64,000 nt of DNA from Burkholderiales bacterium Ga0077547 (GTDB lineage: Bacteria; Pseudomonadota; Gammaproteobacteria; Burkholderiales; Burkholderiaceae_C). A program made the position numbers and the translations under genes. The stretch spans positions 37,392 through 101,391 of the forward strand of contig LNEY01000002.1 in assembly GCA_001464195.1 (NCBI GenBank), in the 5' to 3' direction. A model generated the notes under the pieces. The model was not told the origin of the DNA. It searched no databases and saw only the letters and a program-made list of their open reading frames with translations. Position 1 is the first letter of the stretch. Each line of letters opens with the position of its first letter. This document shows, one piece after another, positions 3,735 to 63,981 of this stretch.

Positions 3735-4718
3735 ATGACCTCGCCTTCTGTCGCCAGCACGCATCAAGCCTTTGACAGACTGCGCAGTTACCTTGAGGGC
3801 CAGGTCCTGGGTCAGCCCGCGCTGGTCGAGCGCCTGTTGGTGGCGCTACTCGCCGATGGCCACCTGCTGGTGGAGGGCCCACCCGGCCTCGCCAAGACGC
3901 GTGCGGTGAAGGCCATGGCTCATGCGGTCGAATGCGATTTTCAGCGGGTGCAGTTCACGCCCGACATGCTGCCGGCCGACCTCACCGGTTCTGACATTTA
4001 CCGGCCCGAGGAAGGCAGCTTCCGCTTTCAGCGTGGCCCGCTGTTCCACAACCTGATCCTCGCCGACGAGATCAATCGTGCGCCGGCCAAGGTGCAGTCG
4101 GCACTGCTTGAAGCGATGGCCGAGCGGCAGATCACCGTGGGCGTGACCACCTATCAACTGCCGCACCTGTTCATGGTGATGGCGACCCAGAACCCGATCG
4201 AGCAAGAAGGCACCTACCCCCTGCCCGAAGCCCAGCTTGACCGTTTCATGCTGCACACCCGCGTCGACTACCCCGACCGCGCGACCACCCGATTGATCAT
4301 GGCGCTGGCCCGTCAGGAAGCGGTGTCTGAGGTCGAGATGCCGCCGCCGCCTCACAAACTGCCACAGGCCGATGTGTTTGCCGCGCGGCACGAGGTGCTG
4401 GCGCTGACCCTGGCCGATTCGGTGGCCGACTACATCGCCGCGTTGGTCGATGCGACCCGCCACCCGGCCCCCTACAGCGCGCTGTTGGCTGGCTGGTTGC
4501 GTTGGGGCGCGAGCCCGCGGGCCGCCATCGCCATCGAACGCGGCGCACGTGCCCTGGCCTGGCTGGATGGTCGCGATTACGTGAGCCCGGAAGACGTGCA
4601 GGCGATCGCCCCCGATGCCCTGCGCCATCGGCTGCTGCTCGACTACAGCGCGCAGGCCGCACGGGTCACCGCGCAGGACTGCGTCGTCGAGCTGCTGCGC
4701 ACAGTCCCGGCCCCCTGA
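3735..4718 (+). CDS. MoxR family AAA+ ATPase
   Basis: LVEGPPGLAKTRAVKAMA (Walker A), LADEINRAPAKVQSALLEAM, MATQNPIEQEGTYPLPEAQLDRFM. Confidence 0.93.
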   Translation: MTSPSVASTHQAFDRLRSYLEGQVLGQPALVERLLVALLADGHLLVEGPPGLAKTRAVKAMAHAVECDFQRVQFTPDMLPADLTGSDIYRPEEGSFRFQRGPLFHNLILADEINRAPAKVQSALLEAMAERQITVGVTTYQLPHLFMVMATQNPIEQEGTYPLPEAQLDRFMLHTRVDYPDRATTRLIMALARQEAVSEVEMPPPPHKLPQADVFAARHEVLALTLADSVADYIAALVDATRHPAPYSALLAGWLRWGASPRAAIAIERGARALAWLDGRDYVSPEDVQAIAPDALRHRLLLDYSAQAARVTAQDCVVELLRTVPAP

Positions 4719-4731
4719 CCCCGGGCCGGTG

Positions 4732-5628
4732 ATGGGACTGCTGCCGGACCTCGACGAACTGGTTGCGCTGCGTGGCGCCGCGCACGGGCTGGAGATGCAC
4801 CTGCGCCATCCGGCGGCGGCGCAGTTGCAGGGTGGACACCGCAGTGCCCACCGCGGCCGCGGTCTCGAATTCGACGAAGTGCGTGCCTATGCCCAGGGCG
4901 ACGACGCTCGTACCATCGACTGGCGCGTCACGGCCCGGCGCGGCCGGCCTCACACCAAGCTGTTCCGCGAGGAGCGCGAGCGCGTGGTGTGGCTCCTCGC
5001 GGATCTGCATCCTGGCCTGTATTTCGGCAGCCGCCAGCAGCTCAAATCAGCCTTGTTGTTGCGCGCGGCCGCCTGGCTGGCCTGGGTCACCATCAGCGCC
5101 GGCGATCGCTTGGGAGCCGTCCTGACCCAAGGCGCTGCGTCGCCGCAGCTGTTGCCGCCACGCTCGCGTGATATCGGCGCGCTGGCCACGCTGCAGGCGC
5201 TGGTACAGAGCCAACCCCAGGCGCCGGGCATGCCCGCGGCCGACGGGCTGGCGGTGGCGCTCAGCACCTTGCGACCGCTGCTTCGTTCGGGCAGCACGGT
5301 GTTCGTGCTCAGCGACTTCTGCACACTCGACGCGGCCGCTGAAACCGCGCTGTTGACCATCGGCTTGCGCGCCGAATGTCGGTTGCTCTGGCTCACGGAT
5401 CCGCTGGAGCGTGATGGCCTGCCCGACGGTGCTTTTCGCGTCGGACTGCCTGGCCAAAGCTGGTCGATCGACGGTGCCAGCAGCCGATCCGCCTGGGTGG
5501 CCGCCTGGGCCCAACGCGAGCAGCGCCTCGCCGACCTCAGCCGCAACCACCGGCTGCCCTTGCTGCGGCTCGACACCGCTGGCGATCTGGCGCAAGCGCT
5601 GCCGCGCTTCATCAGCGAGTCGCGATGA
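4732..5628 (+). CDS. DUF58 domain-containing protein
   Basis: Motif HRGRGLEFDEVRAYAQGDDARTIDWRVTARRGRPHTKLFREERER; follows moxR. Confidence 0.9.
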   Translation: MGLLPDLDELVALRGAAHGLEMHLRHPAAAQLQGGHRSAHRGRGLEFDEVRAYAQGDDARTIDWRVTARRGRPHTKLFREERERVVWLLADLHPGLYFGSRQQLKSALLLRAAAWLAWVTISAGDRLGAVLTQGAASPQLLPPRSRDIGALATLQALVQSQPQAPGMPAADGLAVALSTLRPLLRSGSTVFVLSDFCTLDAAAETALLTIGLRAECRLLWLTDPLERDGLPDGAFRVGLPGQSWSIDGASSRSAWVAAWAQREQRLADLSRNHRLPLLRLDTAGDLAQALPRFISESR

Positions 5629-24384: not shown

Positions 24385-25371
24385 ATGCCCCGCCCGGTCG
24401 GCCGCTTTGCGCCCTCGCCCACCGGCCCGCTGCACGCGGGCTCGCTGGTGGCCGCTCTGGCCAGCTGGCTCGACGCACACGCGATGAACGGCCGCTGGCT
24501 GGTGCGCATCGAAGACGTGGACACGCCACGCTGCGTGGCGGGCGCGGACACCGTGATCCTTGCGCAGCTCGCGGCCTGCGGCCTGCACCCCGACGGGCCG
24601 GTGGTGTGGCAATCGCAGCGCAGTGCGGCGTACCGCGCGGCCCTACAGCAGTTGCAACAGCGTGGGTTGGCTTTTGCGTGTGCCTGCTCGCGGCGCGACA
24701 TCGAAACGGCGTGGCAGGCCCTCGGGCAGGTGCGCAGTCGACATGGTGAACTGGTCTACCCCGGCACCTGCCGCCACGGCTTGAAAGGCAAGTCAGCGCG
24801 AGCGCAGCGCCTGCGCTGCGTGCAGGCCGATGGCAGCGATGTGGTCATAGCCTGGGCCGACCGCAGGCTGGGCCCGCAGACCCAGAACGTCACCCAGGCC
24901 ATCGGCGACGTCGTGCTGCAGCGTGCCGATGGCCTGTGGGCCTACCAGCTCGCGGTGGTCGTCGACGATGCCGCGCAGGGCATCACGCACGTGGTGCGCG
25001 GCGAGGACATCGCCGACAACACCGCGCGCCAGATCCACCTGCAGTATCAGCTCGACCTGCCCACGCCGCAGTACCTGCACACGCCGTTGGTACTGGCGGC
25101 CGACGGCCAGAAGCTGTCGAAGCAAAACGGCGCCAGCGCCTTCGATGCCAGCGACCCGCTGACCGCGCTGCGCGCAGCGGGCAAAGTGCTCGGCATCGAG
25201 GCGCATGGCGTCACGGTGGCCGACTGGCTGGCCAGTGCGGTGCAGTTCTGGGGGGCGGCATTCGTGCCGGCATTCGTGGCTTCGGTACCCGCCCTCTCGG
25301 GCGCGGCCACTCAGTCGGCTGGCGACACAACCCCTGGCGACATCAGCGGGCTGGCCAAACCCTTGGCGTGA
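24385..25371 (+). CDS. gluQRS: Glutamyl-Q tRNA(Asp) synthetase
   Basis: [26 protein letters not shown] and KLSKQNGA class-I motifs; short GluRS-like length. Confidence 0.93.
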
Positions 25372-25754
25372 AGAGGCAAAGCCTGAAGCTGGCCCAGCCA
25401 AGGCATGGCGGATACACCCCACATTTGTTTTTGGGGCACCAGCTCGGCCCGCTCGTTCACGCAGCCCAGCCTCAGGTTCAACACCTTCGGCGCGTCTGCT
25501 TCGGTGGCATAGAGCTGAGTGCCGCAGTCAGCGCAGAACGCCTGCGCTCGGCGGTTGCCACTCTCCGCGACCTTGACGTAATGCTTCGCGGTACCGGACA
25601 CCACCACGTCCTCCACTGGCGTCGGCAGCACCGCTCTGAAGGGTGCGCCCGAGATCTGCTGGCAATCCGCGCAATGGCAGAGCAGCACCTTACTGGGGTC
25701 CACGGTCGCCTTGAATGTGATGGCGCCGCAGTGACACTGACCGGTGATTTGCAT
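25311..25754 (-). CDS. GFA (CENP-V/GFA-type zinc) family protein
   Basis: [38 protein letters not shown]. Confidence 0.9.
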
Positions 25755-25781: not shown

Positions 25782-25803
25782 GGCCTAAGGTTTGAATTAG
25801 GCC
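25782..25803. repeat. Perfect palindrome GGCCTAA-ggtttgaa-TTAGGCC
   Basis: 7-bp perfect inverted repeat, 8-nt spacer, just beyond the 3' end of the AT-rich ORF 25830-26174. Confidence 0.75.
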
Positions 25804-25829: not shown

Positions 25830-26174
25830 CTATTTCTTACGCCCTATTAATAAGTCGTCATAGCTTAGTGCTCGAACCCCAATCATCGGGGCAAACACTC
25901 GGGTTTGTTCGACTATTGCCTTTGCCAGACGCAAAGTTGGGTTTGGTACCTGCCTGTTCGTCATCTGATACAAATATATATTGGTTACCGGCTTTCCATA
26001 TATCGGCTCAAGAGACATGCGAAATTTTTCGTGTAGAGCTGTGTCATGGTCCTTATCGTGAGCCTTTATCGCGCGGATAAAGTCCAAAAGAGGAGGCGTG
26101 CCGAAACTACCTTCGGGAGCCTCTTCCAAAGTCCTGATGGATCTCGGCTTCTTTGACTTTGTTGCTTCAGGCAT
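25830..26174 (-). CDS. Hypothetical protein, 114 aa, in a locally AT-rich segment
   Basis: MPEATKSKKPRSIRTLEEAPEGSFGTPPLLDFIRAIKAHDKDHD...LLIGRKK; no family recognised. AT-rich relative to neighbours. Confidence 0.6.
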   Translation of the reverse strand: MPEATKSKKPRSIRTLEEAPEGSFGTPPLLDFIRAIKAHDKDHDTALHEKFRMSLEPIYGKPVTNIYLYQMTNRQVPNPTLRLAKAIVEQTRVFAPMIGVRALSYDDLLIGRKK

Positions 26175-26233: not shown

Positions 26234-26294
26234 GCCTGACTACTGGCTTTCCCAGTATGCAGTGCTGCTTAACTCTGCGGGTTGCAGCTTAGCC
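26234..26294 (-). repeat. 61-bp attC-like element, copy A
   Basis: Minus strand ggctaagctgcaacccgcagagttaagcagcactgcatactgggaaagccagtagtcaggc; 46/61 ungapped matches to copy B at 62049-62109. Confidence 0.75.
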
Positions 26295-26422: not shown

Positions 26423-27790
26423 TCAGCCGCGAGCGCCCGCCCCCACCGGCAGGCTCAACACAAAGCAGCTGCCGCCGCCTTCGCGCGGCTCGCAGCGCAC
26501 GCGGCCGCGGTGGCGTTCAGCGATCTGCTTGACGAGGCTCAGGCCGAGGCCGACGCCTCCTGCGGTTTCGGCATGGCCGGGCAGGCGGTAGAACGGCTCG
26601 AAGATCCGCTCGCGCAAGGCATCCGGCACGCCACCTCCGCGGTCACACACCCGCACCTCGACCGCTTGCGCGGGGGTCTTCAGCATGATCTCAATGGGGC
26701 TTCCGCCGCCATAACGCTGCGCGTTTTCGATCAGGTTGCGCACCGCGCGGCGCAGCAGCCGCTCGTCGCCTTGCACGCTGGTGGCGCTGCCATCGACGGT
26801 CGCGCCGACGCGTGCGGCTTCCTCGGCAACGAGCCCAAGCACATCGACCGTCTCGTGGCGGTCGATGTCGCGCGCCGCGTCGAGGCGGCTGGCCAGCAGC
26901 ACCTCTTCGACCAGCGCATCGAGTTCGGCGACGTTCTGGTCGATCTCGCGCTTGAGCCGCTCACGCTGCGCAGGGTCGGCGTCTTCGAGCATCGACACCG
27001 CCATGCGCATGCGGGCGAGCGGTGAACGCAACTCGTGGCTGGCGTTGGCGAGCAGCGACTGGTGCGAACGCACCAGCGTCTCGATGCGCGACGCGGCCTG
27101 ATTGAAGCTGGCCGCCACCGCCGCCACCTCGTCGCTGCCACTCACCGCGACCCGGTGACTCAACTCGCCCGCGCCGAACTGCTCGACGCCTTGCCTCAGG
27201 CTTTGCAGGCGACGGGTGAGGCGGCTGACCACCGGCCAGGCCGCAGCCGACACCGCAGCGAACAGCAAGCCAAGCAGCAGCACCAAGCCCGCGCCACCTT
27301 GCCACGTGGGCGACAGAAAAGGCAGTGGCGGCGCACCCGGTGACCCCCGACCATCGCTGGGCCCCTTGCCGCGCCACGGCCGCATCACCCACAGGGTGCG
27401 CCCGTCTGCCAGCGGCACCGCATAGGCACGGTCGCGCGGGTCCGGGGGGGCGGTGGCGTCGTGCGGCTTCGCAGTGGCTGACTTTTGGCGTTCGGCGAAC
27501 AAGGCAGAGGTGGCAATGCGCGCGCCATGCTGGTCGTCGAGGGCCAGCGGCAGACGCAGGCGCTGTGACCAGTCGAGCAGCGCGGTGGCTTGCTCCTCGG
27601 TTGGGGCCTCGTCGCCAGGGATTGAGCGCTCGATCAAGTCGCCCCAGGCCGCCATGCGCTCGGCCAGCACCGAATCGGCACGAATGCGCTCGCCTTCGAT
27701 CTCCCGCTGAAACAGCCAGCCCGATGCGGTAGCGAACAACAACAGCACGAGCACGACCGTGAGGTAGATGCGCAGCGTGAGGGTTTTCAT
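26423..27790 (-). CDS. HAMP domain sensor histidine kinase
   Basis: SLLANASHELRSPLARMRMAVSML H-box; NLIENAQRYGGG N-box; GGVGLGLSLVKQIAERHRG G-box. Confidence 0.93.
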   Translation of the reverse strand: MKTLTLRIYLTVVLVLLLFATASGWLFQREIEGERIRADSVLAERMAAWGDLIERSIPGDEAPTEEQATALLDWSQRLRLPLALDDQHGARIATSALFAERQKSATAKPHDATAPPDPRDRAYAVPLADGRTLWVMRPWRGKGPSDGRGSPGAPPLPFLSPTWQGGAGLVLLLGLLFAAVSAAAWPVVSRLTRRLQSLRQGVEQFGAGELSHRVAVSGSDEVAAVAASFNQAASRIETLVRSHQSLLANASHELRSPLARMRMAVSMLEDADPAQRERLKREIDQNVAELDALVEEVLLASRLDAARDIDRHETVDVLGLVAEEAARVGATVDGSATSVQGDERLLRRAVRNLIENAQRYGGGSPIEIMLKTPAQAVEVRVCDRGGGVPDALRERIFEPFYRLPGHAETAGGVGLGLSLVKQIAERHRGRVRCEPREGGGSCFVLSLPVGAGARG

Positions 27791-61184: not shown

Positions 61185-61880
61185 ATGGCCCACATTCATT
61201 TCATCGGCGGCGAAAAAGGCGGCGTCGGCAAGTCGCTGGTGTCACGCCTGGTGGCGCAGTACCTGATCGACAAGGAACTGCCTTTCCTCGGCTTCGACAC
61301 CGACCGCTCGCACGGCGCTCTGTTGCGCTTTTACTCAGGCTTTGCATCGCCAGTGCTGGTCGACCGCTATGAAGCGCTCGACTCGATCATCGAGGCGGCC
61401 ATTGAGCAACCCGAGCGCCGCATCCTGGTCGATCTGGCCGCGCAGACGCACGACCCGCTGGTGAAGTGGATGGACGAATCGGGCGTGCTCGACATGGCCG
61501 GCGAATCCGGCTTCACCATCACCTACTGGCATGTGATGGATTCGGGCCGCGACTCGGTCGATCTGCTGAAGAAGCTGCTCGACCGCTTCGGCGCGCGCCT
61601 CAACTACGTGCTGGTGCGCAACCAGATGCGCGGCGACGATTTCAGCATGCTGGAACACTCGGGCGAGCAAGATCGCGCGCTGGGCTTCGGCGCCCATGTG
61701 GTGTCGATCAAGCACCTGAGCGACAGCATCATCCAGAAGATCGATGCGTCGAGCAGCAGCTTCTGGGCCGCGCAGCACGATGCCGACAAGTCACGCACCG
61801 GCCTGGGCATGATGGACCGCCAGCGCCTGAAGATGTGGCTGCGCGACGCCTACCAGCAGATCGACAGCGCGCCGGTCTGA
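61185..61880 (+). CDS. ParA/MinD-like P-loop ATPase
   Basis: Deviant Walker A GGEKGGVGKSLVSRLVAQYL; LPFLGFDTDRSHGALLRFY; ILVDLAAQTHDPLVKWMDESG. Confidence 0.82.
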   Translation: MAHIHFIGGEKGGVGKSLVSRLVAQYLIDKELPFLGFDTDRSHGALLRFYSGFASPVLVDRYEALDSIIEAAIEQPERRILVDLAAQTHDPLVKWMDESGVLDMAGESGFTITYWHVMDSGRDSVDLLKKLLDRFGARLNYVLVRNQMRGDDFSMLEHSGEQDRALGFGAHVVSIKHLSDSIIQKIDASSSSFWAAQHDADKSRTGLGMMDRQRLKMWLRDAYQQIDSAPV

Positions 61881-62048
61881 GGGACGACGGCCAGGGCGGT
61901 GAATACCCACCGTTGCGACGGCCTGAAGCGGCTGGCAGAGTCGCATCGAGACGCGCCACCTTTTGCACGAATTTGATGGTGTTGAACCGGCGTGTGCCGG
62001 CTGGATAGTCGTTACCTGACAAAGGTTTACCGTGGTTTTTATTGACCT

Positions 62049-62109
62049 GATTAAACGGCAACGCCCAGAGTTAAGCAGCAGTGCGTGCTGCATAAACTAG
62101 TAGTTAGGC
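62049..62109 (+). repeat. 61-bp attC-like element, copy B
   Basis: gattaaacggcaacgcccagagttaagcagcagtgcgtgctgcataaactagtagttaggc; ends with GTTAGGC (GTTRRRY); inner hairpin GCAGCA-gtgcg-TGCTGC; homologous to 26234-26294 (-). Confidence 0.75.
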
Positions 62110-62114
62110 ATGGC

Positions 62115-62525
62115 ATGGACGCACTGCACCTTGGATCTCAGTCCCAGTTCGTTCGCATCTCTGTCCCCGCCTCCTTCTCCGGTGAGGGTTGGGCACAGGT
62201 CACCTTCGAGGTGGCAGACCAATGTTTCCGCGGCAGGGTGCAAGCGTTTCTCGAGCGCTCCGACTTCGAGCGCCTCTTGCAAGGCTTGGCGCCTTTGTAC
62301 GAGTCCCTCGCAGGAAGTGCCGAACTCTCACCGCTTGAGGCCCAGGTGAGCGTTGTCTTGTCCGGTAATGGCCGAGGCGCCATTGCAGTGGCGGGTTTCG
62401 CCATGGCTCACGCCGCGTTTGGTAGCAAGCTTCAGTTTGAGTTCGAGCTCGACCAGACATACTTGCCTCCCTTCATCGCCGGACTGCAAGCGCTTCTTGC
62501 CAAGAGTGAGGGCAGCCATGCCTAA
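62115..62525 (+). CDS. Hypothetical cassette-like ORF, 136 aa (weak resemblance to WapI/DUF6228-type immunity proteins)
   Basis: Starts 5 nt after GTTAGGC; stop TAA is embedded in GCCTAAC. MDALHLGSQSQFVRISVPASFSGEGWAQVTFEVADQCFRGRVQAFLERSDFERLLQGL...; family call is a guess. Confidence 0.62.
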   Translation: MDALHLGSQSQFVRISVPASFSGEGWAQVTFEVADQCFRGRVQAFLERSDFERLLQGLAPLYESLAGSAELSPLEAQVSVVLSGNGRGAIAVAGFAMAHAAFGSKLQFEFELDQTYLPPFIAGLQALLAKSEGSHA

Positions 62526-62608
62526 CCATTCGGTCAAGCGGACTTGCCTACGGCAAGCCGCTTACCTCAAACTACAAGGGCTTCCCCCGCTGTCAAGCAA
62601 AGCCAGGC
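62520..62608 (+). repeat. attC-like recombination site, degenerate 3' end
   Basis: GCCTAAC (RYYYAAC) then GGTcAAGCGGaCTTGCC-tac-GGCAAGCCGCTTACC: 15-bp stem with two bulged bases. Simple R' absent at expected spot; GCCAGGC at 62602-62608 is a possible degenerate R'. Confidence 0.6.
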
Positions 62609-62848
62609 CATGACGATTCGCGCCAGCGAATCATCATGGAGTGCATTGACTGAATACCGATCGCGTGCCGAAGGCGTTGACTATGTAGCAAGGTGCGGAC
62701 TGGCGAAACTACAAACGGTCATTGATGCAGCTTGCGTGCTGCGGACCCTGATGAAAGACGCGCGCGGGGGCCTCATTCGTTAGTCGAGGACAGCAAGCGC
62801 TGCCTCCTTGAGCTAAACAGGCACTCCCCGCGCAGGTCCAACCTTGAA

Positions 62849-63981
62849 CTCATCAACGCTGGCCGTCACGCGGCGGTGGAAATCGTTCTTTGTGGCGCGT
62901 CTCCTCAAGCGCGCGTGGTCAGGTGGTCAGCCTGCTCAGGCGGGCATCGTGAAGCGCTCACCCCGCGCTAGCACCGCCCAGGCCATGCGCGCGTTCTTCG
63001 CGGCAATCGCCACCACCGCGCGCCAGTACCCCCTGCGCTCGGCCAGCGCCACTGCCCATCGGCTGATGCCATCCGTCTTCAGCTTCGCTGTGTTCAGCAA
63101 GGCCTTCGCCCCCATCACCAGCAGAGAGCGCAGGTACGGGTCACCGGCCTTCGTGATGCGCCCCAGCCGCGCCTTGCCACCCGAGCTGTACTGCCCTGGC
63201 ACCAGCCCCAGCCAGGCAGCGAGCTGACGTCCACACTTGAACTCATGACCATTGCCGATCATCGAGACCAGCGCGGTGGCCATGGTCTCGCCGACACCGG
63301 CCAGACGCATCAGCCGCCGAGCCCGCTCGTCCTCACGGGCCATCTGCGCGATGTGGCGGTCGTACTGAGCGACCCGGTCATCGAGCCGATGCACCTCGCT
63401 GAGCAGGTCACCGATGACCAGATTCGATAAACCTGGCAAGTCTTCGAGCCGAAGCGCCGCCTCACGCCGCACCGTGGCGGCCTTCAGCGGCAGCACGATG
63501 CCGAACTCGCTGAGCAGACCACGGATGCGGTTGAGGGTGGCCGTGCGTGCTTCGACGAACGCCTGGCGGGCACGGTGCACGCACAACTGCGCTTGCTGGG
63601 CCTCGGTCTTCACCGGCACGAAACGCATGTTCGGGCGCTGCACCGCTTCGCAGATCGCAGCAGTATCGGCCGCATCGTTCTTGCCGCGCTTGCCCGAAAG
63701 CCGGTAGGGCGCGACGAACTTCGGGGCCATCAGGCGCACCGTGTGGCCGTGGGCCATGAACAGTCGCGCCCAGTGGTGCGCGCCGGAGCACGCCTCCATG
63801 CCGATCACGCACGGCGGCAGCGCAGCGATCAGCTCGTGCAGCCGAGCGCGAGGCACGCTCGGGCGTACCTGCTCGGGCTTGCCTGACTCGTTCACCCCGT
63901 GCACTGCAAAAACATTCTTGGCGAGATCGATGCCGACGTACAGAATGGCCATGGGCTTCCCCTTCCGGATGAGTTGATGAG
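62849..63981 (-). mobile_element. IS110/IS1111-family insertion sequence (approximate extent)
   Basis: Encloses the transposase; CTCATCAAC at 62849-62857 and its inverse GTTGATGAG at 63973-63981 are a 9-bp inverted pair. True ends not determined. Confidence 0.6.
62936..63952 (-). CDS. IS110 family (DEDD) transposase
   Basis: MAILYVGIDLAKNVFAVHGVNESGK; VIGMEACSGAHHWARLFMAHGHTVRLMAPKFVAPYRLSGKRGKNDAADTAAICEAV; C-terminal LAGVGETMATALVSMIGNGHEFKCGRQLAAWLGLVPGQYSSGGKARLGRITKAGDPYLRSLL. Confidence 0.95.
   Translation of the reverse strand: MAILYVGIDLAKNVFAVHGVNESGKPEQVRPSVPRARLHELIAALPPCVIGMEACSGAHHWARLFMAHGHTVRLMAPKFVAPYRLSGKRGKNDAADTAAICEAVQRPNMRFVPVKTEAQQAQLCVHRARQAFVEARTATLNRIRGLLSEFGIVLPLKAATVRREAALRLEDLPGLSNLVIGDLLSEVHRLDDRVAQYDRHIAQMAREDERARRLMRLAGVGETMATALVSMIGNGHEFKCGRQLAAWLGLVPGQYSSGGKARLGRITKAGDPYLRSLLVMGAKALLNTAKLKTDGISRWAVALAERRGYWRAVVAIAAKNARMAWAVLARGERFTMPA

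What the first reader, a model, noticed from the sequence alone, without database searches (positions are those of the whole stretch)
62049..62109. 61-bp element duplicated 36 kb apart, each copy upstream of an unrelated small ORF
Seen directly: plus-strand 62049-62109 (gattaaacggcaacgcccagagttaagcagcagtgcgtgctgcataaactagtagttaggc) aligns without gaps to minus-strand 26294-26234 (ggctaagctgcaacccgcagagttaagcagcactgcatactgggaaagccagtagtcaggc). By hand count about 46 of 61 positions match, including the 14-mer AGAGTTAAGCAGCA and the end AGTAGTYAGGC. Both precede small ORFs of unknown function, and both ORFs are followed by GCCTAA. The size (about 60 bp), the GTTAGGC end (GTTRRRY) and the internal inverted repeat resemble an integron attC site. 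Interpretation: a family of cassette recombination sites scattered in this genome without an integrase in view.
Basis: partly seen in the sequence, partly recalled or inferred. Interest (0 to 1): 0.72.

Follow-up and report, generated by a model that had tools for sequence, protein, structure and literature searches.

The report
Scattered attI sites of decayed integrons
The repeated 61-base element is the docking site (attI) of an integron, a bacterial gene-capture platform, and this uncultured Burkholderiales lineage carries several such sites around its chromosome, each still followed by a captured gene although the integrase beside them is broken or gone.

Summary
In detail: 46 of 61 positions match, and the best of 200 random window 61-mers reached 38. 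This is attI, the platform docking site, not attC. Homologues in family genomes lie next to intact intI genes in the canonical divergent layout, and one copy in this genome (contig C8) lies next to an intI piece. The true attC is at the other end of each small ORF (62520-62571, strong single-strand fold; a short remnant at 25782-25803), which explains the shared GCCTAA. The genome has four attI copies. Every intI piece I could read is incomplete, and the two 3' ends lack the second catalytic arginine. In the genus, 9 of 15 genomes carry 23 copies. Both window copies lie at positions shared with sister species, where attI is kept but the gene behind it nearly always differs. Copy 62049 has intact core boxes, a WapI-like immunity cassette, and an IS1111-type element inside its attC; copy 26234 is a fossil with mutated core boxes. 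So these are dispersed, degraded chromosomal integrons. That attI persists without intI at several fixed loci is unusual. Use by an integrase acting from elsewhere is unproven.

The parts
62049..62109 (+). attI site of integron locus A (W62); L box CATAAAC 62091-62097, R box GTTAGGC 62103-62109; core triplets intact
   Evidence: homologous to attI sites beside intact intI in G271 and G236 (0/1000 shuffles reach the score)
61907..62048 (+). remnant of the intI-attI intergenic region (starts CCCACCGTTGCG); the intI gene itself and the LexA box are gone
   Evidence: aligned with C8 and C16; C8 keeps a LexA-type box CTGTATAAAACAACAG, W62 does not
62115..62525 (+). cassette ORF, WapI-like immunity protein family (PF24716, E 7.6e-18)
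62520..62571 (+). 5' part of the cassette's attC (R'' box GCCTAAC, imperfect hairpin with one extrahelical base), cut by an IS before its R' box
   Evidence: (bottom strand z -5.2, 0 of 200 shuffles)
62572..62935 (-). conserved non-coding region of an IS1111-type insertion sequence (candidate seekRNA/bridge RNA) in the attC; contains ATTCGTTAG, also found at an attC end
   Evidence: aligned with the same IS in the attC of contig C8
62936..63952 (-). IS110/IS1111 DEDD transposase gene of that element; the contig ends at 64000
   Evidence: PF02371, PF01548; for the contig end
26234..26294 (-). degenerate attI of integron locus B (W26); both core boxes mutated (AAGC, GTCAGGC)
25830..26174 (-). 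cassette ORF of locus B, 114 aa, no Pfam family
25782..25803 (-). remnant attC (GGCCTAATTCAAACCTTAGGCC) after the locus B cassette; homologues in G006 and G009 at the same place
   Evidence: z -3.3
61185..61880 (+). ParA/MinD-like NTPase, fixed left flank of locus A
26423..27790 (-). histidine-kinase-like ORF (named by reading, not scanned), fixed left flank of locus B
25311..25754 (-). GFA-like ORF (named by reading, not scanned), fixed right flank of locus B

Best explanation
Both copies are attI sites, the docking sites of chromosomal integrons. In an integron, IntI recombines a circular gene cassette, through its folded attC, into attI at G^TTRRRY, so attI ends up directly upstream of the newest cassette. 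This lineage had several integrons at different chromosomal positions. At each window copy intI has been deleted, leaving [attI - one cassette - attC]. Locus A (62049) is structurally intact apart from the missing intI and an IS1111-type insertion in its attC. Locus B (26234) is a fossil. Shown: homology to attI beside intI, layout, cassette plus attC downstream, positions shared across species with different cassettes, broken intI. Inferred: that IntI placed these cassettes, that the copies come from duplicated intI-attI units, and that they are now inactive or depend on an integrase from elsewhere.
For: Layout: C8 has an intI N-terminus 150 bp upstream of and divergent from attI. G008 C232, G009 C27, and family genomes G271, G236 and G289 show the same layout, with an open full-length IntI in G271 and G236. 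Similarity of W62 to the G271/G236 attI is reached by 0 of 1000 shuffles. Downstream: nearly every copy is followed within about 70 bp by an ORF; many of these end in an attC, an IS-interrupted attC or an attC remnant, and the bases after the GTT vary as expected for different cassettes. The window attC folds with z -5.2. Shared positions: locus A in G000, G008, G009; locus B in G000, G006, G008, G009, G013, G014; locus C in G000 and G004, with conserved upstream genes but unrelated downstream cassettes except G006/G009. intI decay: C17 and C16 lack 67 aa including the HTLRH arginine; G008 C232 lacks 40 aa including it; G009 C21, G014 C71, G008 C278 and G043 keep fragments. The attI block is more conserved (74-85% mean pairwise) than the adjacent promoter region (55-61%).
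Against: Similarity of W62 to class 1 attI1 alone is weak (17 of 1000 shuffles reach it). My automatic attC scan found few canonical attC sites in the genus (6 in 48 kb downstream of attI against 2 in 45 kb upstream, all loci), because many are short, degenerate or IS-interrupted; those calls rest on position and on reading the sequence. G000 is a draft of 33 contigs, 88% complete, with breaks inside intI, so an intact intI could be missing. No recombination was measured.
Confidence: 0.92

Rival explanations
1. The element is an attC site, and the ORFs are cassettes scattered by off-target integration.
For: GTTAGGC end, about 60 bp length, a 6-bp internal inverted repeat, cassette-like ORFs next to it.
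Against: The element is upstream of the ORF and adjoins intI in intact relatives; no attC-like fold; sequence conserved rather than only structure; separate attC at the ORF's other end.
Confidence: 0.03
2. The intI-less attI units are working docking ports: an IntI encoded elsewhere in the cell (now or recently) inserts and removes cassettes at them in trans. (This is compatible with the best explanation and concerns present or recent activity.)
For: Locus B shares one intI-less left junction in G000, G008, G009 and G014, yet the first cassette differs in each. Core boxes are intact in W62, C16, G008 C20/C263, G013 C388, G014 C61. Family genomes G236 and G271 hold an intact IntI plus a second attI without an intact one beside it.
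Against: Different cassettes can also result from different deletions out of one long ancestral array. In this genome every visible intI is broken or incomplete. Several locus B copies have mutated core boxes.
Confidence: 0.2
3. The conserved unit (about 130 bp plus attI) is a small mobile element of its own, spread by a transposase, that happens to carry attI.
For: Units share a left limit near CCACCGTTGC with four different sequences to its left. A type-B unit is found at a second place in G003, beside a cytochrome c-like gene.
Against: The unit is exactly the intI-attI intergenic region, intI itself is present in several copies, and no terminal repeats or target duplications were identified.
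Confidence: 0.08
4. Chance similarity or a common short repeat family unrelated to integrons.
For: None beyond the small size.
Against: E 1e-6 to 1e-17 between copies in the genome, null of 200 random 61-mers, and repeated association with intI, cassettes and attC.
Confidence: 0.01

Closest known systems
Chromosomal integrons with decayed integrase and CALINs (clusters of attC lacking an integrase), e.g. Xanthomonas (PMC12444791), IntegronFinder survey (PMC9024848)
   Same: Ancestral integron platform at fixed loci, intI lost or truncated, cassettes left behind, several loci per genome, degraded-integron interpretation.
   Different: Here the attI is still recognisable at each locus, usually before one or a few cassettes. 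IntegronFinder 2 reports a CALIN only with two or more attC by default (PMC9024848), so loci like these would mostly be missed.
Multiple integrases and pseudo-integrons in one genome (PMC2426708)
   Same: 20% of intI-bearing bacteria had more than one intI, about a third were pseudogenes, some from duplication within the genome.
   Different: That survey searched intI, not attI; copies where intI is wholly gone, as in both window copies, were outside it.
attI1 of class 1 integrons (read from plasmid NZ_CP043574.1)
   Same: Docking site beside a divergent intI; GTTAAGCAGCA here against GTTACGCAGCA there, L box ...AAAC, R box GTTA...
   Different: Low overall identity; the adjacent integrases here belong to a related but different chromosomal lineage.
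IS1111-attC group insertion sequences (ISKpn4, ISPst6; PMC11187229, and PMC2447020 as cited there)
   Same: DEDD transposase, long non-coding region, inserted near one end of an attC at the same point in two loci.
   Different: Not named or typed here; guide RNA function not tested.

Membership tests
attI (integron platform site) | Lies next to an integron-integrase gene, divergently oriented | tested here: met
   Met for homologues: C8, G008 C232, G009 C27, G271, G236, G289. For W62 and W26 themselves intI is gone; G009 keeps a remnant at locus A.
attI (integron platform site) | Core site with L box (...AAC) and R box (GTTRRRY) about 5 bp apart | tested here: met
   W62 CATAAAC-TAGTA-GTTAGGC; W26 has lost it (AAGC, GTCAGGC), as a fossil would.
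attI (integron platform site) | Directly followed by a cassette whose far end is an attC | tested here: met
attI (integron platform site) | Recombined by IntI with attC | not testable with these tools
   needs a recombination assay
attC | Bottom strand folds into an imperfect hairpin pairing R''/R' and L''/L' | tested here: not met
   61-bp element: z -1.55, 16 of 200 shuffles
attC | Located at the 3' end of a cassette ORF | tested here: not met
   The element is on the 5' side of both ORFs; the 3' sides carry separate attC sequences
CALIN | At least two attC sites with no integrase nearby (IntegronFinder 2 default) | tested here: inconclusive
   Window loci show one attC (A) or one remnant (B). 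The contig ends inside the IS after locus A, so more cassettes cannot be excluded.
IS1111-attC group | IS110/IS1111 DEDD transposase and insertion at a fixed point in attC | tested here: met
   (W62 and C8 share the junction CTC(AA)ACTACAAGGGCTTCCCC)
IS1111-attC group | Subterminal inverted repeats | tested here: met
   C8 copy: GGACTTCCCC / GGGGAAGTCC; the window copy is cut by the contig end

The most novel reading that the evidence does not exclude
The chromosome carries several integrase-free attI ports at fixed loci that were loaded and unloaded in trans by one IntI, so that one integrase served a distributed set of integrons. Integrase-free attI units were also copied from one locus to another.
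Probability: 0.2. Interest if true: 0.75.

Novelty: new variant of a known kind. Interest (0 to 1): 0.5.

Why it matters
Standard integron surveys look for intI and attC. Loci that keep an attI with a single cassette and no integrase are mostly invisible to them, yet in this genus they are common. They give a comparative record of how chromosomal integrons decay into isolated accessory genes. They also make a concrete question testable: can scattered attI sites be served by one integrase in trans? The cassettes found so far include an immunity-like protein, an acetyltransferase-like protein and a methyltransferase.

Tried and rejected
Rfam scan of the window: no family. A promoter/terminator pattern scan around locus A found nothing, so a Pc promoter is not shown. 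The simple attC scanner was too strict for this genus. Direct comparison with attI1 alone is too weak to prove the point; the argument was moved to relatives with intact intI. G011 has an intact intI of another lineage (62% identical to IntI of G008) with no attI hit of this type. A search with the locus B left flank mostly hit the kinase coding end and did not settle whether the unit is mobile. A megablast of intI against plasmids found nothing. A literature search for solo, orphan or isolated attI gave no integron paper; the library is partial.

Full report
Observation. The two stretches match at 46 of 61 positions without gaps, the next best non-self match in the window is 30, and the best non-self score of 200 random window 61-mers is 38. 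The shared 14-mer is exact and otherwise absent from the window even with two mismatches. In the whole genome (2.84 Mb draft, 33 contigs, 88% complete) there are four strong copies: the two in the window, C8:457-516 and C16:664-724.

What the element is. On contig C8 the element lies 150 bp from, and divergent to, the N-terminus of an integron integrase, the standard intI-attI layout. A sequence-only model built from 17 copies (R1) was run on the genus and on 301 genomes of the family. Its hits in family genomes G271, G236 and G289 lie about 160-330 bp from intI, again divergent; IntI is open and full length in G271 and G236 and frameshifted in G289. W62 and C8 match those attI sites far beyond 1000 shuffles. 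Core features agree: L box CATAAAC, five bases, R box GTTAGGC, preceded by a GTTAAGCAGCA repeat like GTTACGCAGCA of attI1. Similarity to attI1 alone is weak for W62 (17 of 1000 shuffles) and better for C8 (1 of 1000). The element does not fold like attC. It is therefore attI.

The cassettes. Right after attI comes a small ORF, and at its stop codon an attC. For the window copy at 62049 the ORF (62115-62525) is a WapI-like immunity protein (PF24716), and the attC begins at 62520; its bottom strand folds with z -5.2 and one extrahelical base. For the copy at 26234 the ORF (25830-26174) has no Pfam match and the attC is reduced to GGCCTAATTCAAACCTTAGGCC, with close homologues at the same place in G006 and G009. 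In other genomes full attC sites follow, for example in G009 C21, G014 C71, G014 C63, G013 C388, G043, G208 and G060. The bases just after GTT differ between copies (GTTAGGC, GTTAGAG, GTTATGG, GTTGGAC, GTTATGC), as expected if they come from different cassettes.

The IS. In the window and in C8, an IS110/IS1111-type element (transposase 62936-63952) interrupts the attC at the same point, and its non-coding region is well conserved between the two. The C8 copy has subterminal inverted repeats. Targeting of attC by IS1111 elements is known (PMC11187229).

Fixed loci, changing cassettes. Comparison of upstream sequence and of flanking proteins shows that the window copies are old. Locus A (after a ParA-like gene) holds attI in G000, G008 and G009; in G009 an intI remnant (residues about 189-291) abuts the ParA stop, so intI was once there. 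Locus B (between a histidine-kinase-like and a GFA-like gene) holds attI in G000, G006, G008, G009 (twice), G013 and G014. Locus C (contig C16) holds it in G000 and G004. Downstream DNA is unrelated between genomes until the fixed right flank, except G006 and G009, which share a GNAT-like ORF.

Decay. Every visible intI piece in this genome is broken or incomplete: C17 has a frameshift and a 67-residue deletion that removes the HTLRH motif; C16 has the same deletion and LGY for LGH; C8 runs off its contig after about 96 codons. The G008 intI lacks 40 residues including that motif. In G208, G210 and G043 intI keeps about 50 N-terminal and 20-50 C-terminal residues. attI is more conserved than the promoter region before it: 74-85% against 55-61% mean pairwise identity. 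A LexA-type box CTG-N10-CAG is present in C8, G008 C232, G008 C278 and G013 C388 and lost in both window copies. W26 and several other locus B copies have mutated core boxes.

Open point. Left of a common limit near CCACCGTTGC, about 30 bp before the intI start, the copies show four kinds of junction. The locus B junction is shared by G000, G008, G009 and G014, and is also found in G003 at another place. So intI seems to have been lost from locus B before these species split, yet their first cassettes differ. This fits use in trans, but also fits different deletions from a longer ancestral array. I cannot decide between them.

Known or new. Pseudo-integrons and several integrases per genome are known (PMC2426708), as are CALINs at fixed loci (PMC12444791, PMC9024848). 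I found no report of attI kept without intI at several loci, but the paper library is partial. I rate it a new variant of a known kind.

Limits. Genomes of the genus are mostly metagenome-assembled drafts, deposited under names such as Rhizobacter sp. D1_Bin_37 and Rubrivivax sp. D8_MAG_00017, and contigs often break at these repeats. Nothing was tested experimentally.

Noticed in passing
window 62572-62935; L022 990-1340: The non-coding region of the attC-targeting IS carries ATTCGTTAG, the same letters as the attC end beside the IS in C8 (TTCATTCGTTAGGC): a candidate guide segment of a seekRNA/bridge RNA.
   Followed up: partly
L142 (G009 locus B) 4127-4204 and 4858-4938: Two attI units stand in tandem, 730 bp apart, each with its own ORF behind it; the first is more decayed.
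   Followed up: partly
L151 (G003:C15 about 306240-306494): An attI unit with the locus B type of left flank lies downstream of a cytochrome c-like gene, away from locus B, as if the intI-less unit had been copied or moved.
   Followed up: partly
L093 from 1890 on; L143 and L142 at locus B: A GNAT-like ORF that is the first cassette at locus B in G006 and G009 has a 70% identical relative as second cassette at locus C in G004.
   Followed up: no
L001, L006 (G000 contigs C17 and C16, right ends): Two intI 3' ends in different surroundings share the same 67-residue deletion, so an already broken intI may have been duplicated.
   Followed up: partly
L019 1-180, L022 2551-2600, L085: A second kind of insertion (TTACAGRGACTTCC...) sits near the start of other attC sites (C16, C8 second cassette, G013), probably another attC-targeting IS.
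   Followed up: no
L095, L205, L211: intI copies in related genera (G043, G208, G210) keep the same first 50 or so residues and a short C-terminal end, with the middle lost.
   Followed up: partly
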